Source: Pseudomonas chlororaphis subsp. piscium (GTDB lineage Bacteria > Pseudomonadota > Gammaproteobacteria > Pseudomonadales > Pseudomonadaceae). Taken from it: a DNA stretch of 64,000 nucleotides. The DNA is taken from assembly GCF_003850345.1 (NCBI RefSeq), contig NZ_CP027707.1, positions 1,240,001-1,304,000 of the forward strand, read 5' to 3'. Each line of letters starts with the position of its first letter. The first letter of the stretch is position 1. Positions 4,777 through 13,745 of the stretch are shown here, piece by piece. Below the pieces are notes generated by a model that saw only the letters and a program-made list of their open reading frames with translations, was not told where the DNA came from and did not search any database. The position numbers and the translations under genes were made by a program.

Positions 4777-6186
4777 ATGCGTTACATCAGCACCCGCGGC
4801 CAGGCACCGGCCCTGAATTTCGAAGACGTCCTGCTGGCCGGCCTGGCGAGCGACGGCGGCCTGTACGTACCGGAAAACCTGCCACGTTTCACCCAGGAGG
4901 AAATCGCTTCCTGGGCCGGCCTGCCGTATCACGAGCTGGCCTTCCGGGTGATGCGCCCATTCGTCACCGGCAGCATTCCGGATGCCGACTTCAAGAAAAT
5001 CCTCGAGGAAACCTACGGTGCGTTTTCCCACAACGCCATTGCCCCGCTGCGCCAGCTGAACGGCAACGAGTGGGTCCTGGAGCTGTTCCACGGCCCGACC
5101 CTGGCGTTCAAGGACTTCGCCCTGCAACTGTTGGGTCGCCTGTTGGACTACGTGCTGGAGAAGCGCGGCGAGCGCGTGGTGATCATCGGCGCCACGTCCG
5201 GCGATACCGGTTCGGCCGCCATCGAAGGCTGCAAGCGTTGCGACAACGTCGATATCTTCATCCTGCACCCGCACAACCGTGTGTCCGAAGTGCAGCGTCG
5301 GCAGATGACCACCATCTTCGGTGAGAACATCCACAACATCGCCATCGAAGGCAACTTCGACGACTGCCAGGAAATGGTCAAGGCCAGCTTCGCCGACCAG
5401 GGCTTCCTCAAAGGCACTCGCCTGGTGGCGGTGAACTCGATCAACTGGGCGCGGATCATGGCCCAGATCGTCTACTACTTCCACGCGGCCCTGCAGCTGG
5501 GCGGCCCGGCGCGTTCGGTGGCGTTCTCGGTACCGACCGGCAACTTCGGCGATATCTTCGCCGGTTACCTGGCCCGCAACATGGGCCTGCCGATCAACCA
5601 ACTGATCGTCGCCACCAACCGCAACGACATCCTGCACCGCTTCATGAGCGGCAACCAGTACGTCAAGGAAACCCTGCACGCCACCCTGTCGCCGTCGATG
5701 GACATCATGGTCTCGTCGAACTTCGAGCGCCTGCTGTTCGACCTGCACGGCCGCAACGGTGCCGCGCTGGCCGCGCTTATGGATTCCTTCAAGCAAGGTG
5801 GCGGTTTCAGCGTCGAGCAGGAGCGCTGGACCGAAGCCCGCAAGCTGTTCGATTCCCTGGCCGTGGACGACGCCCAGACCTGCGAGACCATCGCCGAAGT
5901 CTTCGCCCAGACCGGCGAAGTGCTCGACCCGCACACCGCGATCGGCGTCAAAGCCGCCCGTGAGTGCCGTCGCAGCCTGGACATCCCGATGGTGGTGCTG
6001 GGCACCGCGCATCCGGTGAAGTTCCCGGAAGCGGTGGAGCAGGCCGGGGTCGGCAAGGCCCTGGAGTTGCCGGCGCACCTGTCCGATCTGTTCCAGCGCG
6101 AAGAGCGTTGCACCGTCCTGGCCAACGACCTGAAGGCTGTCCAGGCCTTCGTCAGCCAGCACGGCAATCGCGGCAAACCGCTCTGA
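4777..6186 (+). CDS. thrC: threonine synthase
   Basis: A 469-residue PLP enzyme converting O-phosphohomoserine to threonine. The PLP lysine is in HGPTLAFKDFALQ (about residue 113). ATSGDTGSAA is the phosphate-binding loop, and the N-terminal MRYISTRGQAP with YVPENLP is typical of the family. The ATG at 4777 has AGGAG eight bases upstream. A strong terminator follows, closing the hom-thrC unit. Confidence 0.97.
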   Translation: MRYISTRGQAPALNFEDVLLAGLASDGGLYVPENLPRFTQEEIASWAGLPYHELAFRVMRPFVTGSIPDADFKKILEETYGAFSHNAIAPLRQLNGNEWVLELFHGPTLAFKDFALQLLGRLLDYVLEKRGERVVIIGATSGDTGSAAIEGCKRCDNVDIFILHPHNRVSEVQRRQMTTIFGENIHNIAIEGNFDDCQEMVKASFADQGFLKGTRLVAVNSINWARIMAQIVYYFHAALQLGGPARSVAFSVPTGNFGDIFAGYLARNMGLPINQLIVATNRNDILHRFMSGNQYVKETLHATLSPSMDIMVSSNFERLLFDLHGRNGAALAALMDSFKQGGGFSVEQERWTEARKLFDSLAVDDAQTCETIAEVFAQTGEVLDPHTAIGVKAARECRRSLDIPMVVLGTAHPVKFPEAVEQAGVGKALELPAHLSDLFQREERCTVLANDLKAVQAFVSQHGNRGKPL

Positions 6187-6335: not shown

Positions 6336-9300
6336 ATGCTTATGTTGCTGCGCCCGGTTTTCCGCACATTGATGGTTTTGGCGATGCTGTCCCTGGCCCC
6401 GTGCCTGATGGCGGCGCAGAACCTGCCCTTCAAGCTGGTGCCGGCCTTCGTCGAGCTGCAGCCGCTCACCCTGGCACCGGCCGAACGGCAATGGCTGGCG
6501 GGCCATGGCACCTTGAAGGTGGGCATCTCGATCGACGACTATCAGCCGATCGACATCACCCGCGACCGCAACCGTTACCAGGGCATCAGCGCCGACTACC
6601 TGAGCCTGGTGGGCGAACGCCTGGGCGTGTCCCTGGAAGTCCTGGGGTTCTCCGAGCGCGAACAGGCGGTGGAAGCGTTGCGCACTGGGGCGATCGACAT
6701 CCTGACCAGCGCCAACGGCTACGAGCGTGGCGCCGCGGGGCTGCATTTTTCCAGTGACTACATGCCCGACCGCGCAGTCGTGGTGGTGCGCAGGGACGAG
6801 GCGGAAATGCCCGAAGACCTGGCCGGCAAGAAAGTGGTGCTGCTGGAGGGCTATGCGGACGCCAAGATCGCCCATGCCGCCTATCCCAACAGCCAGATCA
6901 TTCTTTCGCCCAATCTGTACAGCGGCCTGGAAGCCCTGAAACAGGGGGATGTCGATGCCTTTATCGGCAATGAAGTGATCGTCCGTGCCTACAAGGCGCT
7001 GCGCCCTTACCTGGGGTTGCAGGTCCGCACTGAAAGCCGGCTGCCGCCGATCGGCTTTGCCTTCGCCACGCGCCAGACCGACCCGCTGCTCGGCCGCCTG
7101 ATCGAACAGGCGCTACAGAGTATCGACGACTCCACGCGGCGGGAGATCCTGGCCCGCTGGACCACCGGGCTGGGCGCCAGCACCGGCGACGAGCGGATCA
7201 AACTGAGCAAGCAGGAGCGCGCCTGGCTGCTCGAACATCAGCATGTGGTGGTGGCGTCCCAGCAGTTTCCGCCCTACGTGTTCAAGGACAAGGACGGCCA
7301 GTGGGCCGGGTTGAACATCGACCTGCTCAGCCGGATTTCGCGCATGACCGGCCTGCAGTTCGTCCAGGAGGAAACCTTCTCCACGGCCCACACCCTGGAC
7401 CTGCTGCTCAAGGGCCGGGCGCAGATGAACACCACGCTGTCGGCCAACGATGAGCGCTGTGGCTTCCTCGACTTCACCCATGCCTTTGGCGGCTCGGCCT
7501 GGGTGTTCGTGGTCCGCGCCGACGACATCCAGCTCAATACCTTCAACCAATTGGCCGGCAAGGTGCTGGCGCTTCCGGCCAAGCATGCGCTGGAGAGTTA
7601 CGTCCGGCAGAACTACCCGAAGGTCCACCTGCGTCTGGTCGACACTTACCTGGATGCGCGGGCCCTGGTGGCCAGCGGCGAAGCCGACGCGACCATCCAG
7701 AACGAAGTCGAGGTGCAGGGCTACCCGGCGAACGGGCTGCGCATCGGTCGCAGCGTCGAGGGCAAGTGGTCGGCCGACGAGTTGTCGGTGCGCCGGGATC
7801 AGCCCGAGCTGCTGAGTATCCTGAACAAGGCCTTGGAAGCCTTCCCGGTGGCCGAGCTCAGCGCCATCCGCCTGAAATGGCTGGGGGTGACGCCGGTGCC
7901 GGTGCCCATGTGGCAGCGGGTGCCGGTGTGGATCTACTGGGTCACCTTCACCGCGATCCTGTTCGGTTTGCTGTCTTTGGCCTGGAACACCCGGCTCAAG
8001 GGGCAGATCCGCCAACGCCTGCAAGCCGAGCAGCGGCTCAACGACCAGCTGGCGTTCAAGCGCGCCTTGCTCGACGGCATCCCCAACCCGATCTTCGTCC
8101 GCGACCTGGCCGGGCGCCTGATCACCTGCAACAAAAGCTACGAAACCCAGACCGGCATGCACCTGGAGCAGATCAAGGGGCTGTGCCTGACCGAGCTGGA
8201 CGTGCTGCCCGAGGCCACGGCCCGACAGCTGCACTGCGAGTTCCTGGAGCAGTTGGAGTCCCAGGCGTCGGTGTTCGCCGACCGTCAGATCGAATCCAGG
8301 AACGGACCGGTGCAGGTCTATCAATGGACGGTGCCGTTCTACAGTGCCCAGGGCGAGTTGCAGGGTCTGCTGGGGGGCTGGATCGATATCACCGAGCGCA
8401 AGCGTCTCGAGGAGGAGCTGCTGGAGGCGCGTCGCGCGGCGGATCGGGCGAACTACGCCAAGAGCGCCTTTCTTTCGACCATGAGCCACGAAATTCGCAC
8501 GCCGATGAACGCGATCATCGGTTTGCTGGAGCTGGAAAAGGAACAGGCACGCCTGCGCGGCATGCCGTTTTCCGATGCCTTGCGCGTGGCTTATCAGTCG
8601 GCGCAGGAGCTGGTCGGCCTGATGGGCGACAACCTCGACCTGGCCAAGATCGAGGCCGGGCATATGCAGCTGGCGCCGCAGACCGTGGCCCTGCGAGGCT
8701 TCTTCGAAGACATACAGCAATTGTTCGAGGTCACCGCGCGCAACAAGGGGCTGCACCTGACGCTGGCCTTCGACAAGGCGGCGGACGGGTTCTACTGGCT
8801 CGACCCATTGCGCCTGCGCCAGGTGCTGCACAACCTGCTGAGCAACGCCCTGAAGTTCACCCAGGCCGGCGAGGTGCGGGTGTCCGTTGAGCGCCAGGCC
8901 GATGAACATGGCGCCGACCGCTTGTGCATCAGCGTGGCCGACACCGGGTCGGGTATCAGCCCGGAGAAGCAGGCGAGCCTGTTCGATCCGTTCATTCAGG
9001 CCCATGTGCAGACGACGCCGGAGCAGGGCGGAACCGGCCTGGGCCTGAGCATCTGCAAGCAACTGGTGGAACTGATGGGCGGCCGTATTCTGCTGCAAAG
9101 CCAACCCGGCATGGGGACCACCGTGACCCTCGAACTCTACCCGGAACAGGTGGTCGAGGCTTTCAGCCAGTCGCCCCAGGTGACCAGCGAACGCCCGCAG
9201 AGCCGTCGCATGTCGGTGCTGGTGGTCGACGACGTGCGGGCCAATCGCATGGTGCTCAGCCAGCAACTGATGTTCCTCGGGCACAAGGTGGTGGCGCTCG

Positions 9301-9917
9301 ACAGTGCCGAGGCGGCGCTGGCGCGCTGGCAGGGCGAGACGTTCGACCTGGTGATGACCGACTGCCACATGCCGGGCATGAGCGGTTATCAGCTGAGCGA
9401 AGCGATACGTGAGATCGAGGCCCGGGAAGGGCATGACGCCTGCCCGCTGATCGGCTGCACCGCCAATGCCTTCGAGGATGAACAACAGCGCTGCGAGCAG
9501 GCCGGCATGGATGAGCTGCTGGTCAAGCCGGTGACCCTGAACCGGCTGGCGCAGATGCTTGCGCGCTTCTTGCCGCCGCCATCCTTCGACATCCAGACCC
9601 TGCGCACCATGACCCAGGCCGACGAGCCGATCCTGCAACGCATGCTGCGCGAGCTGTGGAACAACCTGGGGCAGGAGCAGGCGGCCCTGGAGTCGGCGGT
9701 GCTGGAGCAGGACTGGGGGCGTATCGGCGCGTCCACGCACCGCCTCAAAGGTGTGTGCTGCCTGATCGACGCGCTGCCGCTGGCCCAGGTCTGCATCGAG
9801 CTGGAGGCCGTTGCCCGGGCCCGCTCGACGGCGGTGCTGGCGGAGCACTGGCTGCGTCTTAAGGAAGCCATCGGCTGCTTGCGCAGCGATATCGAGCCGC
9901 ACCTGGGTAGCGATTAA
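6336..9917 (+). CDS. BvgS/RocS-type hybrid sensor histidine kinase with two periplasmic binding domains
   Basis: About 1193 residues. The order is: signal/anchor (MLMLLRPVFRTLMVLAML), two tandem bacterial solute-binding type 3 domains (about 60-290 and 300-520), a membrane helix (about 531-551), a PAS domain (about 575-690), a HisKA domain with His718 in STMSHEIRTP, a HATPase domain (GTGLGLSICKQL), a receiver with Asp1009 in MTDCHMPG, and an HPt domain with His1135 in STHRLKG. This is the four-step phosphorelay layout of BvgS, EvgS and P. aeruginosa RocS1. It should sense a periplasmic ligand and pass phosphate to the neighbouring receivers. An alternative ATG lies at 6342. Confidence 0.92.
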   Translation: MLMLLRPVFRTLMVLAMLSLAPCLMAAQNLPFKLVPAFVELQPLTLAPAERQWLAGHGTLKVGISIDDYQPIDITRDRNRYQGISADYLSLVGERLGVSLEVLGFSEREQAVEALRTGAIDILTSANGYERGAAGLHFSSDYMPDRAVVVVRRDEAEMPEDLAGKKVVLLEGYADAKIAHAAYPNSQIILSPNLYSGLEALKQGDVDAFIGNEVIVRAYKALRPYLGLQVRTESRLPPIGFAFATRQTDPLLGRLIEQALQSIDDSTRREILARWTTGLGASTGDERIKLSKQERAWLLEHQHVVVASQQFPPYVFKDKDGQWAGLNIDLLSRISRMTGLQFVQEETFSTAHTLDLLLKGRAQMNTTLSANDERCGFLDFTHAFGGSAWVFVVRADDIQLNTFNQLAGKVLALPAKHALESYVRQNYPKVHLRLVDTYLDARALVASGEADATIQNEVEVQGYPANGLRIGRSVEGKWSADELSVRRDQPELLSILNKALEAFPVAELSAIRLKWLGVTPVPVPMWQRVPVWIYWVTFTAILFGLLSLAWNTRLKGQIRQRLQAEQRLNDQLAFKRALLDGIPNPIFVRDLAGRLITCNKSYETQTGMHLEQIKGLCLTELDVLPEATARQLHCEFLEQLESQASVFADRQIESRNGPVQVYQWTVPFYSAQGELQGLLGGWIDITERKRLEEELLEARRAADRANYAKSAFLSTMSHEIRTPMNAIIGLLELEKEQARLRGMPFSDALRVAYQSAQELVGLMGDNLDLAKIEAGHMQLAPQTVALRGFFEDIQQLFEVTARNKGLHLTLAFDKAADGFYWLDPLRLRQVLHNLLSNALKFTQAGEVRVSVERQADEHGADRLCISVADTGSGISPEKQASLFDPFIQAHVQTTPEQGGTGLGLSICKQLVELMGGRILLQSQPGMGTTVTLELYPEQVVEAFSQSPQVTSERPQSRRMSVLVVDDVRANRMVLSQQLMFLGHKVVALDSAEAALARWQGETFDLVMTDCHMPGMSGYQLSEAIREIEAREGHDACPLIGCTANAFEDEQQRCEQAGMDELLVKPVTLNRLAQMLARFLPPPSFDIQTLRTMTQADEPILQRMLRELWNNLGQEQAALESAVLEQDWGRIGASTHRLKGVCCLIDALPLAQVCIELEAVARARSTAVLAEHWLRLKEAIGCLRSDIEPHLGSD

Positions 9918-10007
9918 GACTTGTCTTATGGGGCGACCTGCCCTCTGCGATTAACGTACCGGCCCGCTGCGGATTCTCGCCGCTCTCGCCGTATCGGAGG
10001 TCGTTGC

Positions 10008-11252
10008 ATGCACTCGTTGAAAGTGCTCGTTCTTGAAGACAATTCGTTCCAGTTGATGGCCCTGCACCAGATGCTCAACGCCAACGGCGTGTTCAACGTG
10101 TTGAACGCCGAAAGCGTTGCCGCCGCCCGGCAATCCCTGGACAGCAAGGGGCCGGTGGACATCGCCATCTGCGATCTGTACCTGGAGCAGGCCGACGGGC
10201 TGGAACTGATTCGTTACCTGGCGGAGCAACAACGGGCGAAGGCGCTGATCATTCTCAGCGACGCGCAAGCGGATGTCCGCGAAGGCGCCGCGGCCATGGC
10301 CCGACAGCAGGGCCTGAATGTGCTGGGCTGCCTGCCCAAGCCGGCCTCGGTCACCCTGGTCAATGAACTGCTGAGCCTGTACCAGCAATGTTTCGAGCCG
10401 GGCCCGCAAGCCTTGTCTCTGGCCCAGGTGCGCGAAACCCTGGGGCTGGATGTATTCCAGCCTGAAGTGCCGACTGCCGAGGAAGGGCAGGCGGCGGTAC
10501 TGCGCCATGGGGTCGCGCACTTTCAGCCGGTGGTCAGCCAGGACGGCGAGGTCCAGGGCGTCGAGGCGCTGGCGCGCTGGCAGCACCCGGAGCATGGCCT
10601 GATGCTGCCCGCCGAGTTCCTGCCGGTGATCGAGTTCGCCGGGCTGGAGGAGGCCTTCACCTGGCTCATGCTGGAGCAGGCCATGCAGCTGTCGGCCGGG
10701 GTGCGCCTGGTCATGGGCCGTTCGCTGGCGATCTCGGTGAACATCCCGGTGGGCATGCTGGAACTGCCGAACTTCGCGCGCCAGCTGGAAGCCCTGCTGC
10801 GCCGTTTTGAAGTACCGGCACGGCTGCTGACCTTGGAAATCGTCGAGACCACCGAGCTGCAAACCGATACCGCCCATGTGGAGGCCTTGCTGCGACTGCG
10901 CATGATCGGCTGCAAGCTGTCGATTGGCGACTTCGGCACCGGCGGCACCAGCCTGCAGCGTCTGCTGGAGCTGCCGTTCACCGAGCTGAAGATCCCACCG
11001 GCCTTCGTCTGCGGGCTGGCGGCCGATGAGCGCAAGTCGGCGGTGGTGGCCGGCGCCATGAGCATGGCCCGGCGCATGTCGCTGGGCCTGGTGCTGGCCG
11101 GTATCGAGAGCGCCGCCGACTATGAGGCGGCGAAAAAGCTGGGGCAGGCGCGCCTGCAAGGCTGCTTCATCGCCGAACCCATGAGCGCGGTCGCCGTGCG
11201 CCAGTGGATCGCCCGGCGCTTGCGTGACGACCTCGACGAACTGGCTGGCTGA
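10008..11252 (+). CDS. receiver-EAL protein (RocR-like) with a degenerate EAL domain
   Basis: 414 residues. The receiver domain (1-120) has acidic residues in LEDN, phospho-acceptor Asp56 (CDLYL), Ser in ILSDA and Lys in LPKP, so it can probably be phosphorylated by the upstream kinase. The EAL domain (about 165-405) keeps E186 (EALARW), the Asn in SVNIP, E in LEIVET and K328. However, the first Asp of the usual DDFG is Gly307, the Asp after LKI is Pro330, and the Glu of the usual EGVE is Ala364. P. aeruginosa RocR has Asp, Asp and Glu at these places and hydrolyses c-di-GMP, so loss of catalysis is inferred here. The ATG at 10008 follows TCGGAGG. Confidence 0.9.
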   Translation: MHSLKVLVLEDNSFQLMALHQMLNANGVFNVLNAESVAAARQSLDSKGPVDIAICDLYLEQADGLELIRYLAEQQRAKALIILSDAQADVREGAAAMARQQGLNVLGCLPKPASVTLVNELLSLYQQCFEPGPQALSLAQVRETLGLDVFQPEVPTAEEGQAAVLRHGVAHFQPVVSQDGEVQGVEALARWQHPEHGLMLPAEFLPVIEFAGLEEAFTWLMLEQAMQLSAGVRLVMGRSLAISVNIPVGMLELPNFARQLEALLRRFEVPARLLTLEIVETTELQTDTAHVEALLRLRMIGCKLSIGDFGTGGTSLQRLLELPFTELKIPPAFVCGLAADERKSAVVAGAMSMARRMSLGLVLAGIESAADYEAAKKLGQARLQGCFIAEPMSAVAVRQWIARRLRDDLDELAG

Positions 11253-11260
11253 GCCCGTAC

Positions 11261-11923
11261 TCAGGCGAGCCCGTGTTCCTGCACGTAGATGTACAGCGCC
11301 GCGGCGCTGGACAGGCCGAGCTTGCGCATGGCGCTGACCTTCTGGGTGCTGACGGTCTTTTTGCTGCGGCTGAGCTTCGCGGCGATTTCCCCGACCGTCA
11401 TCCCGGCCGCCAGCAGGCGGATCACTTCGAGCTCGCGGGGCGACAGCTGTTCCCCGGACAACAAGCGGTCCGGCCCGACCTCGCCCGCCAGGCTGAGGAG
11501 TTGCTGGATGGCCTGGGCGACGAACACCTTGTCCCGGCGCACATGGCTGATCGCCGCCGGCAGTTCATCGGCCAGGCTGGCCTTGCTCAGCAGGCCCATG
11601 ACGCCCAGGTCGAGAATCGAGCGGAACAGCCCGGCATTGTTGAGCATGGTCACTACCACGATCGGCAGCTCGGGGTGATGCCGGCGCAGTTGCTCGATCA
11701 GGCGCAGGCCATCGTTCTGCTGTTCCCCCGGCATCATGAAGTCGGTGACCAGTACTTCGCAGGGACAGCTTTGCAGCAGTTCGATGAGGGCTGTCGGGGA
11801 GCTGGCTTCGCCGACGATCTCCAGGTTGTAGTCGCGCTCCAGGACGGCCCGCAGGCCGATGAGAAAAATCGGGTGGTCGTCGGCCAGGACGATCCGCAGT
11901 TTTTTATTGGATGTTTGATTCAA
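11261..11923 (-). CDS. NarL/LuxR-family response regulator (RocA1/BvgA/EvgA-like)
   Basis: 220 residues. The receiver domain has the acidic pair in LADDHP, Asp61 (VTDFMMPG), Thr in VVTML and Lys in LLSKAS. The C-terminal helix-turn-helix is LSPRELEVIRLLAAGMTVGEIAAKLSRSKKTVSTQ in character (residues about 153-190). The start is taken as TTG at 11923, because GGAG sits six bases upstream and no ATG exists before the receiver core. It converges on the EAL gene with only 8 bases between stop codons. It is probably the DNA-binding output of the hybrid kinase. Confidence 0.9.
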   Translation of the reverse strand: MNQTSNKKLRIVLADDHPIFLIGLRAVLERDYNLEIVGEASSPTALIELLQSCPCEVLVTDFMMPGEQQNDGLRLIEQLRRHHPELPIVVVTMLNNAGLFRSILDLGVMGLLSKASLADELPAAISHVRRDKVFVAQAIQQLLSLAGEVGPDRLLSGEQLSPRELEVIRLLAAGMTVGEIAAKLSRSKKTVSTQKVSAMRKLGLSSAAALYIYVQEHGLA

Positions 11924-12399
11924 GACTCGCTCCGGTGAGAAGGCAGCATTTCGGACAGGCCCTGCAGCCGGGCAACCGTCATCGCTGCGCCGCCGGGCTT
12001 TGCCAACCGCTTGAGGAGAGGGCCCCCATGGCCACACCCCCACCTGCCAGAAAGACCTGCACAAGGCCTGAAAATCCGCCCCGGGAGCAGGTTGCGATGC
12101 CGGTCCGGATCGACCCTCGGCGCTACTCTTGCCAACAGGCGGTATCGCGCTACAAGAAGGTCGAGGCGCTGATCGATCAGCCGGCACCCTCGCGTTCGTT
12201 TCTGGTTTGAAGTGCCGATTCTAGTCTGATATGGGCTGTTTTTTATCTGTCATGTTTTGCGGGCATGCTGGATCAACTCAGGTCGGCAACCCTCGGCGGT
12301 TGCGAACTTTCTTCTCTGGGCGATGGTCACTTGAATGCCAGAAAGCTACCGGCATTGGTGTATTCGAGCCTTAATTCCAGCTATTGAGTGGTGATCGAG
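11924..12399. other. 476-base intergenic region upstream of the response regulator
   Basis: It holds the promoter side of both the minus-strand regulator and the plus-strand DUF3509 gene. A 60-codon ORF (12028-12210, +) has a GAGGAGAG upstream but a proline- and arginine-rich composition with no recognisable domain, so it is not called. From 12211 the sequence turns AT-richer (TTTTTTATCTGTCATGTTTTGC), which fits a promoter region. No clear operator repeat was seen. Confidence 0.5.
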
Positions 12400-12684
12400 A
12401 TGGAAAGTATCAGCCTATTGTTGGGTGAAGCCTTGAGCCCGTATCAGGTAACTCTGACCCCCCGCGCGCAGGGGGAATGCCTGGTGACCCTGAAGAATGC
12501 CTTGGGGGCCATAGTGGTCGAGCGTGAATTCAGTCAGGCCCAGTTGACCGACAAGCGCCAGTTGACCGATGTCGTCGACGGCCTGCATCGCGACGTATTG
12601 ATCGCCGAAGGTCGCCTGGAACCCTGTGTCATCGCGGCCTTGCGCAATGTGGCCCAGGAGAAGGCGTTCGACAGCGCACGCTGA
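12400..12684 (+). CDS. DUF3509-type small protein
   Basis: 94 residues starting MESISLLLGEALSPYQVTL. Short proteins of this build, with a leading amphipathic segment, a beta-rich middle and a C-terminal helix ending in ALRNVAQEKAF, are common in Pseudomonas and are annotated as DUF3509, of unknown function. The ATG at 12400 is preferred over the GTG codons at 12388 and 12391, but no strong ribosome-binding site distinguishes them. A terminator follows at 12802. Confidence 0.7.
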   Translation: MESISLLLGEALSPYQVTLTPRAQGECLVTLKNALGAIVVEREFSQAQLTDKRQLTDVVDGLHRDVLIAEGRLEPCVIAALRNVAQEKAFDSAR

Positions 12685-12851: not shown

Positions 12852-13745
12852 CTAGCGCTGCGGCGCGTCGTGGAAAAATGCCAGGGCATCGCTGCGGTAT
12901 TGCTCGCGCAGCGACGGTTCCAGCCATTGGGCATAAAGCTCCAGCAAAGTGTCCGGGCGCAGTTCGAGCAGCGCCCGGTTGATGCGCTCCACCGCCTGCC
13001 GGCCCTGCGGGGTGTTCGAGCAGCCGACGTTCACCGATTGATACTTGGGCATGCCCTGGATCGGGTAGAACTCCAGGTCATCGGGGTCGATGCCTTGCTG
13101 TCGTGCCTGGAAACGAATTTCCGTCTGGTAACCGATCAGGGCTTTCAGGCGCCCGTGGCGTTGCATCTGCAGCAGGTTGCCGATGGCGCTGTTGCCGTAG
13201 TGGGCGATCAGCGTGCCGAGCGGAGCCTGTTTGAGCAGGCTGTCGATCGGTTCGCCATAACTGCGTTCGGCCACCACGCCCACATTGTGCAGGGGGCTGA
13301 CCAGCAGCGCGCCCAGGTCGACCTGGCCGTCATGGATAAACGGCAGCAGGCCGGGACGATCCTGGCGGCGTACCGCCAGGCCGTTGCTGAACATGCGAAA
13401 AGTGGTGATGGAAAACGCCAGCCATTGCGCCCGCTGCGGGGTGAACAGCAGCGCCGGGTCGCAGACGAAGGGCAGCTCCCGGAGCATCTGCATGGCCCGG
13501 GCGCGGTTGACGTGCACGAACTGATGGTCGTACTCCGGCAGGCTGGCCAGCAGCGCGGGCAGGGCCTGGTCGATCACGCCCCGGCCTTTTTGCGGACCTT
13601 CGAAAATCGTCATCGGCGGCAGGTCGCGCAATACCCAGATCAGTGTGTCCCGGGCCTGGCTGGCCGGTGACCAGGCGCCGAGCACCAGCAGCATCGACAA
13701 CAGGCGTATGCCACGAATCATTCGCCTGCTACGGCATGGGGTCAT
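12852..13745 (-). CDS. periplasmic solute-binding-like protein (TIGR02285-like)
   Basis: 297 residues with a signal peptide (about 1-31, ending ASQA). The mature part begins TLIWVLRDLPPMTIFEG, the typical first strand of type 3 solute-binding folds. No transporter subunits are adjacent, so it may be a stand-alone binding protein. The overall features match a Pseudomonas family of unknown ligand. Two starts are possible: ATG at 13745 with AAGGA upstream, or ATG at 13721 (MIRGIRLLS) with AGCAGG upstream. Confidence 0.75.
   Translation of the reverse strand: MTPCRSRRMIRGIRLLSMLLVLGAWSPASQARDTLIWVLRDLPPMTIFEGPQKGRGVIDQALPALLASLPEYDHQFVHVNRARAMQMLRELPFVCDPALLFTPQRAQWLAFSITTFRMFSNGLAVRRQDRPGLLPFIHDGQVDLGALLVSPLHNVGVVAERSYGEPIDSLLKQAPLGTLIAHYGNSAIGNLLQMQRHGRLKALIGYQTEIRFQARQQGIDPDDLEFYPIQGMPKYQSVNVGCSNTPQGRQAVERINRALLELRPDTLLELYAQWLEPSLREQYRSDALAFFHDAPQR

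What the first reader, a model, noticed from the sequence alone, without database searches (positions are those of the whole stretch)
10008..11252. RocR-like protein whose EAL domain has lost key catalytic residues
Seen directly: the residues that in P. aeruginosa RocR are the first Asp of DDFG, the Asp after LKL/LKI and the Glu of EGVE are here Gly307, Pro330 and Ala364, while E186, the Asn, the LEI-x-E Glu and K328 remain. The receiver domain is intact. Metal coordination should be damaged, so I infer a non-hydrolytic c-di-GMP sensor, or a scaffold competing with the regulator for phosphate.
Basis: partly seen in the sequence, partly recalled or inferred. Interest (0 to 1): 0.72.

Follow-up and report, generated by a model that had tools for sequence, protein, structure and literature searches.

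The report
c-di-GMP enzyme turned probable sensor
A Pseudomonas signalling protein built like an enzyme that destroys the messenger c-di-GMP has lost key metal-holding residues in an orderly way across many species while keeping its messenger-binding residues, so it most likely now senses the messenger instead of destroying it.

Summary
The REC-EAL protein at 10008-11252 (+) has G307, P330 and A364 where RocR has D295, D318 and E352; its receiver is intact. It is no private mutation: of 102 distinct orthologue rows, 100 beside thrC or recJ in Pseudomonas, none keeps D318, about half have also lost D295 and E352, and a gingeri/fuscovaginae branch erodes further. A published EAL structure places the three residues at metal site M2, D295 also bridging to M1 (PMC5301497). 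The other M1 ligands are invariant in the window's clade, and c-di-GMP contacts Q161 and R179 (ExLxR) are kept almost everywhere, unlike in RflP and BluF. The EAL domain is under purifying selection (median dN/dS about 0.2). Best reading: a non-hydrolytic, phosphorylation- and c-di-GMP-responsive regulator in an EvgS-like phosphorelay with an RcsB-like partner. Inactive EAL receptors (LapD, FimX) and a RocR relative lacking the E352 position (RocR3) are known, so this is a new variant of a known kind with unusually clear intermediates. Binding, loss of hydrolysis and phosphotransfer are inferred, not measured.

The parts
10008..11252 (+). REC-EAL response regulator, 414 aa
   Evidence: Open frame, Pfam REC and EAL; orthologues at one locus
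10023..10346 (+). Receiver (REC) domain, residues 6-113; phospho-acceptor D56 at 10173-10175
   Evidence: Pfam; D56, S84, K111 in 102 of 102 orthologue rows
10506..11180 (+). EAL domain, residues 167-391
   Evidence: Pfam; AlphaFold2 model, best PDB match RocR 3sy8 E 4.9e-33
10563..10577 (+). Retained ExLxR motif E186-A-L188-A-R190 (metal-site Glu and c-di-GMP-contact Arg)
10926..10931 (+). G307-D308, where RocR has D295-D296 (DDFG): first Asp lost
10995..10997 (+). P330, where RocR has D318 (LKID-type Asp): absent in all 102 orthologue rows
11097..11099 (+). A364, where RocR has E352 (first Glu of EGVE)
6336..9917 (+). EvgS-like hybrid kinase: two SBP_bac_3 stretches, PAS, HisKA, HATPase, REC, Hpt; first ATG at 6336 (open frame begins at 5964, true start not determined)
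   Evidence: Pfam, NCBIfam nearest EvgS, below its cut-off, His/Asp/His motifs found
11261..12187 (-). RcsB-like LuxR-type response regulator, convergent, its stop 8 bases from the EAL stop; true start uncertain (open frame given)
   Evidence: Pfam, NCBIfam nearest RcsB, below its cut-off

Best explanation
It is the non-DNA-binding second output of an EvgS-like phosphorelay. The kinase (6336-9917) would phosphorylate both the RcsB-like regulator (11261-12187) and D56 of this protein. Its EAL domain descends from a RocR-type phosphodiesterase but has lost the residues around metal site M2 (D295, D318, E352) while keeping three ligands of M1 and the dinucleotide contacts. It should therefore hold c-di-GMP without cutting it, and report phosphorylation plus c-di-GMP through protein contacts, most likely to the kinase or the RcsB-like partner. 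Shown here: the substitutions, their order on the tree, purifying selection, retained ligand residues and linkage to kinase and regulator. Inferred: no hydrolysis (about 0.9 likely), c-di-GMP binding (about 0.65), phosphotransfer, and the target of the output (about 0.4).
For: Residue states in 102 orthologue rows: Q161 102, R179 102, Q372 102, E175 100, K316 100, E265 98, D296 98, N233 94, D295 53, E352 53, D318 0. In the window's clade E175, N233 and E265 are unchanged in 36 of 36 rows and D295, D318, E352 lost in 36 of 36. M2 of PA3825 is held by Asp161 and Asp183 (Mg form) or Asp160 and Glu217 (Ca form), matching RocR D296, D318, D295 and E352 by spacing (PMC5301497, passages). Mutating the first Glu of ExxE abolishes PDE activity in TBD1265 (PMC12943098, passage). 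Inactive EALs with ExLxR can bind c-di-GMP (PMC10333796, passages). Controls: E. coli BluF and RflP have lost Q161 and R179, the genome's own LapD keeps them. EAL dN/dS median about 0.2. Kinase loss goes with ExLxR damage: 4 of 8 rows without the orthologous kinase against 1 of 98 with it, Fisher P 7e-5, not corrected for kinship (the 98 hold one repeat, L206 = L102).
Against: No binding, hydrolysis or phosphotransfer was measured. D295 also bridges to M1, so M1 is weakened too. The ExLxR rule comes from a review, and Q161/R179 could be kept for folding. Five kinase-containing rows of the gingeri branch (L133, L136, L139, L140, L168) keep ExLxR while losing N233, so an intact M1 is not always needed. 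At two thrC-recJ loci (L169, L170) the protein keeps ExLxR and its group's other ligands although kinase and partner regulator are gone, so it is not tied only to this module. One copy of the window's type has lost R179 (L205). The kinase-ExLxR association rests on few, partly sister, rows. The model says nothing on bound ligand (pTM 0.65).
Confidence: 0.55

Rival explanations
1. Ligand-independent antagonist: like BluF or RflP/YdiV, the EAL fold binds a partner protein (the RcsB-like regulator or the kinase) and c-di-GMP plays no part.
For: BluF is an inactive EAL protein that antagonises the regulator encoded beside it (PMC3509220, passages). RocR3, a RocR relative lacking the E352-position Glu, still lowers cupB and cupC expression by an undetermined mechanism (PMC12051241). 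Loop 6 departs from DFG(T/A)GYSS in the orthologues tabulated.
Against: BluF and RflP have lost Q161 and R179; in this family Q161 is in 102 of 102 rows and R179 in 102 of 102, with one later exception, L205.
Confidence: 0.17
2. Phosphate sink: only the receiver matters, and competes with the RcsB-like regulator for phosphoryl groups; the EAL domain is passive.
For: D56, S84 and K111 in 102 of 102 rows; D11 in 101, six of them read upstream of a start that my script had placed too late (Asn in L042); REC dN/dS (0.131 in the window's clade) is lower than that of EAL (0.206). Kinase, protein and regulator are linked.
Against: The EAL domain is full length and under purifying selection, with 37% of its columns invariant in the window's clade and most pocket residues among them; a passive domain should erode.
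Confidence: 0.12
3. Weak or differently metallated phosphodiesterase: what is left of M1 supports slow hydrolysis.
For: E175, N233, E265, K316 and D296 remain in the window; single-metal mechanisms were once proposed for RocR (PMC5301497, passage); about half of the family (53 rows) lacks only D318 of the three.
Against: D295 and E352 are listed metal ligands (PMC7911125, passage) and the corresponding Glu mutation abolished activity in TBD1265 (PMC12943098, passage). More plausible for the D318-only relatives than for the window protein.
Confidence: 0.11
4. Decaying enzyme without a function, on its way to loss.
For: Truncation in L059, an in-frame TAG reported in G235, and kinase deletions in a few genomes.
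Against: dN/dS about 0.2 over 412 pairs in the window's clade; the new residues at G307, G313, T314 and P330 are themselves fixed in its 36 rows.
Confidence: 0.05

Closest known systems
RocR of P. aeruginosa (3sy8) and the Roc system
   Same: REC-EAL architecture over the whole length (E 1.2e-50); RocS1-type kinase with SBP_bac_3, PAS, HisKA, REC, Hpt and a LuxR-type regulator in the same locus (PMC12051241)
   Different: RocR keeps all the catalytic residues tabulated; about 31% identical in the structural match. Here the kinase gene is upstream and the regulator convergent, between thrC and recJ; the paper describes rocA and rocR as divergent genes
RocR3 of P. paraeruginosa (PMC12051241, abstract, passages, sections 2.4 and 3 read)
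   Same: RocR relative lacking the E352-position Glu (their E357T; the +5 shift in numbering is my reckoning from their loop 6 numbers) and with loop 6 changes; still antagonises partner outputs when overproduced
   Different: RocR3 is 49% identical to RocR with one of seven essential residues changed and no intact kinase gene beside it; here D295 and D318 are lost too and a kinase is present. RocR3 was not aligned here
LapD and FimX, inactive EAL c-di-GMP receptors
   Same: Catalytically dead EAL that binds c-di-GMP (PMC3032553, passages and section 8; PMC3527489, passages and section 13); the genome's own LapD keeps Q161 and R179
   Different: That LapD has lost E175, N233, D295 and D296 but keeps D318 and E352, a different set; it carries a GGDEF domain and no receiver. 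FimX was not aligned here
BvgR of Bordetella (PMC12805831, passages)
   Different: From recall, BvgR has no receiver domain; not aligned here
PvrR (NCBIfam NF052596)
   Same: Best NCBIfam match, residues 1-400, 213.6 bits
   Different: Far below the family's cut-off of 580 bits

Membership tests
EAL c-di-GMP phosphodiesterases (RocR/PvrR type) | Metal-ligand residues E175, N233, E265, D295, D296, E352 all present (list from PMC7911125) | tested here: not met
   D295 is Gly and E352 is Ala; D318 is also lost, to Pro
EAL c-di-GMP phosphodiesterases (RocR/PvrR type) | Loop 6 motif DFG(T/A)GYSS (from PMC12943098) | tested here: not met
   DFGTGGTS
EAL c-di-GMP phosphodiesterases (RocR/PvrR type) | Hydrolysis of c-di-GMP to pGpG | not testable with these tools
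   Needs an enzyme assay
PvrR equivalog (NF052596) | Score above curated cut-off (580 bits) | tested here: not met
   213.6 bits
Non-catalytic EAL c-di-GMP receptors | EAL fold with essential catalytic residues missing | tested here: met
Non-catalytic EAL c-di-GMP receptors | ExLxR and substrate-contact residues kept | tested here: met
   E186, L188, R190, Q173
Non-catalytic EAL c-di-GMP receptors | Measured c-di-GMP binding | not testable with these tools
   Needs ITC or DRaCALA
Response regulators of a hybrid-kinase phosphorelay | Intact receiver (acidic pair, phospho-Asp, Ser/Thr, Lys) | tested here: met
   E10, D11, D56, S84, K111 in the window
Response regulators of a hybrid-kinase phosphorelay | Phosphotransfer from the neighbouring kinase | not testable with these tools
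   Linkage only
BluF/RflP-type antagonists that do not bind c-di-GMP | Loss of the dinucleotide-contact residues Q161 and R179 | tested here: not met
   Both kept in the window; lost in E. coli BluF and RflP. BluF non-binding from PMC3509220, RflP/YdiV non-binding from recall

The most novel reading that the evidence does not exclude
A REC-EAL coincidence detector: a family in which selection removed the M2 side of the metal centre stepwise (D318 first, then D295 with E352) to turn a phosphorylation-controlled phosphodiesterase into a phosphorylation-gated c-di-GMP receptor with at most one metal, which feeds back on its own phosphorelay, so that the kinase's second arm changed from erasing the messenger to reading it.
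Probability: 0.35. Interest if true: 0.75.

Novelty: new variant of a known kind. Interest (0 to 1): 0.52.

Why it matters
How an enzyme of second-messenger turnover becomes a receptor is usually judged from isolated end points such as LapD or FimX. Here one mostly syntenic family in Pseudomonas holds intermediates in living species: only D318 of the three lost (syringae and putida relatives), all three lost (chlororaphis, protegens, fluorescens), and further erosion of M1 (gingeri and relatives). It makes the order and the consequence of ligand loss directly measurable, and offers an explanation to test for RocR3 and BvgR, whose mechanisms the cited papers call unresolved. It also warns against annotating every REC-EAL regulator as a phosphodiesterase.

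Tried and rejected
Sequencing error or private mutation: rejected, the states recur in many separate assemblies. Relaxed decay: not supported by dN/dS (Nei-Gojobori, only pairs with EAL dS 0.15-1.2 and REC dS 0.1-1.5 were kept; pairs are not independent and dS is high). Opposite strand of 10008-11252: an open frame exists (9951-11159, 402 aa from TTG); long antisense frames are common in such G+C-rich coding sequence (recall) and it was not pursued. Promoter and terminator scan 9700-12500: 0 promoter-like sites (0.3 expected) and 3 terminator-like (1.8 expected). Inverted repeats near the gene ends: nothing notable. Literature: in the listings of searches (open-licence PMC only; listings are capped) I saw no paper on this gene; (chlororaphis, RocR, EAL domain) gave 0 papers; passages of the P. 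protegens Pf-5 swimming study that I saw name other c-di-GMP genes (PMC11004494). Rao 2008 on RocR mutants is not held, so residue roles come from later papers. A single origin of the D295 loss is favoured but not proven: the D295G group needs one change on the tree, with support 63, in a quick tree with long branches. The order of D295 against E352 is not resolved.

Full report
OBSERVATION. The frame 10008-11252 (+) encodes 414 aa with a receiver domain (6-113) and an EAL domain (167-391). The best solved relative by sequence is RocR, 3sy8, over nearly the full length (E 1.2e-50). Aligned to RocR, the three named positions are G307 (D295), P330 (D318) and A364 (E352); E186, N245, E277, D308, K328, E367 and Q384 are kept.

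WHAT THE RESIDUES DO. One paper lists E175, N233, E265, D295, D296 and E352 of RocR as metal ligands and Q161 and R179 as substrate contacts (PMC7911125, passage). In the PA3825 EAL structures, metal M2 is held by Asp161 and Asp183 in the Mg form and by Asp160 and Glu217 in the Ca form, where Asp160 bridges M1 and M2 (PMC5301497, passages). The spacings (22 from Asp161 to Asp183, 56 to Glu217) equal those from RocR D296 to D318 and E352; this mapping is mine. The three lost residues thus lie on the M2 side, D295 being shared with M1; E175, N233 and E265 are the rest of the list and I take them as M1. In BlrP1 the equivalent of D318 (Asp325) sits on an element that projects into the active site without touching c-di-GMP (PMC3989770, passages). 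Changing the first Glu of ExxE abolished activity in TBD1265, changing the second did not (PMC12943098, passage).

SURROUNDINGS. Upstream lies a hybrid kinase with two SBP_bac_3 stretches, PAS, HisKA, HATPase, REC and Hpt, nearest in NCBIfam to EvgS but below the cut-off (402 of 1995 bits); downstream and convergent lies a LuxR-type regulator nearest to RcsB, also below the cut-off (171.9 of 235). The kinase's His, Asp and Hpt His motifs and the regulator's Asp motif are present. The genome is 7.07 Mb with 33 EAL matches; the closest database protein is 98% identical, from P. chlororaphis.

ORTHOLOGUES. 54 of 298 genomes drawn from the genus match at E 1e-60 or better; one of these 54, G286, is a paralogue by residues and context. 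In a draw of 298 from the family, orthologues have 42% identity or more and other matches 38% or less; by score only G092 (L062, eroded) lies near the second group. Twelve of those places were fetched: five orthologues (L197, L198, L205, L206, L207; L197 and L206 repeat L169 and L102) all lack D318, and seven matches at 38% or less (L199-L204, L208) have all 14 tabulated residues as in RocR, D318 included. The best 80 of 170 relatives came with names from genome contigs (pattern-based, so divergent ones may be missed): P. chlororaphis, protegens, fluorescens, lactis, gingeri, fuscovaginae, syringae, viridiflava, putida strains and others. Of the 102 distinct rows scored for context (window not counted, truncated L059 counted), 100 lie beside thrC, recJ or a gene between them.

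GRADED LOSS. Of 144 proteins (RocR and window included) 113 were distinct. Dropping the truncated L059 and LapD (L072), and setting apart RocR and eight paralogue rows, leaves 102 orthologue rows including the window. States: D318 in 0, D295 in 53, E352 in 53; N233 94, E265 98, D296 98, E175 100, K316 100, E355 96; Q161, P162, R179 and Q372 102 of 102. The window's clade (36 rows) has G295, P318 and T or A at 352 throughout, and invariant E175, N233, E265, D296, K316, E355. A branch of 11 rows (gingeri, fuscovaginae, agarici and relatives) keeps G295 but has A, T or S at 318 and T, G, S or C at 352, and has lost N233 in 6 of 11. On a tree built without the catalytic columns, the D295G group needs one change (support 63), and the nine outgroup rows, which hold all three residues, are split off (support 96); two of these nine have other changes (L066, L065_1). 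With that outgroup, D318 went first, at the base, then D295 with E352.

SELECTION. Median dN/dS of the EAL domain is 0.211 (189 pairs, D318-only group), 0.206 (412 pairs, window's clade) and 0.251 (47 pairs, gingeri branch); REC gives 0.165, 0.131 and 0.113 (filtered pairs, see Tried and rejected). The altered residues are themselves fixed: G307 and G313 in 47 of 47 rows of both branches, T314 and S315 in 36 of 36 of the window's clade.

LIGAND BINDING. A review states that an inactive EAL can still bind c-di-GMP, with ExLxR determinative, listing FimX, LapD and Erwinia CsrD under EXLXR and E. coli CsrD as ExMxR without binding (PMC10333796, passages). FimX-EAL has 4 of 10 catalytic residues, and FimX binds with Kd about 120 nM (PMC3527489, section 13). 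The window protein keeps ExLxR. As controls, E. coli BluF, reported not to bind or cut c-di-GMP (PMC3509220, passages), has His and Gln at 161 and 179; RflP (YdiV; non-binding from recall) has Leu and His; the genome's own LapD (1065 bits, cut-off 1020) keeps Gln and Arg. Among the 33 EAL domains of this genome only the window's has Pro at 318. Against a strict reading, Gln and Arg at these places are also the rule in intact EAL domains, so their retention may partly be shared ancestry; the point is that they outlast the metal ligands.

LINK TO THE KINASE. Kinase and regulator flank the gene in 36 of 36 loci of the window's clade scored, 11 of 11 of the gingeri branch, and 45 of 53 of the D318-only group. 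One further locus of the window's type (L205) has no detectable kinase between thrC and the EAL gene, and alone of the rows examined has lost R179, to Cys. Overall ExLxR is damaged in 4 of 8 rows without the orthologous kinase (same orientation, 40% identity or more) and in 1 of 98 with it (P 7e-5). The 98 include the window and one repeat (L206 is the contig of L102); kinship is not corrected and L060 and L061 are sisters. Against a strict link, L169 and L170 have lost kinase and regulator but keep ExLxR and the other ligands of their group, and L042 and L143, away from the locus, keep ExLxR too.

STRUCTURE. AlphaFold2 on 67 aligned sequences: mean pLDDT 84.1, pTM 0.65. Foldseek puts RocR first (E 4.9e-33), and the MucR EAL with c-di-GMP bound aligns at 2.3 A over 238 columns. 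The large RocR rmsd (14 A or more) means the domain arrangement is not settled.

COMPARISON. RocR3 of P. paraeruginosa lacks the Glu that I equate with E352 (their E357T; their loop numbers A304 and Y306 show the same +5 shift) yet lowers cupB and cupC when overproduced, mechanism to be determined (PMC12051241, sections 2.4 and 3). [quoted passage not shown] The window protein works, on this reading, like these and like LapD and FimX, but this genome's LapD has lost a different set (E175, N233, D295, D296) and keeps D318 and E352. It is not a member of the PvrR family by score, nor a canonical phosphodiesterase by residues.

VERDICT. Real, conserved, probably functional, and a new variant of a known kind. 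Loss of hydrolysis is likely; c-di-GMP sensing is the favoured but unmeasured function.

Noticed in passing
L187 (own genome C1:2112864-2113571, +): Another EAL domain with GDFG (first Asp lost) but LKID-type Asp and the first Glu of EGLE intact.
   Followed up: no
L188 (own genome C1:4468080-4468757, +): EAL domain with AAQ in place of EAL and other losses, next to an intact EAL at 4469981.
   Followed up: no
L205: No kinase detected between thrC and the EAL gene, regulator kept, and R179 of the EAL is Cys.
   Followed up: partly
L060, L061, L062, L169, L170: Kinase and regulator both undetected at thrC-recJ while the EAL gene remains; L060-L062 have further eroded EAL sites.
   Followed up: partly
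L198; L143, L042: Orthologues outside the thrC-recJ locus; L198 keeps the kinase > EAL < regulator order.
   Followed up: no
window 12852-13745 (-): TIGR02285-family protein (240.8 bits, cut-off 143.3), found near the module in most loci.
   Followed up: no
L059 and G235 (L048): Damaged copies: L059 lacks the receiver, G235 has one in-frame TAG reported.
   Followed up: no
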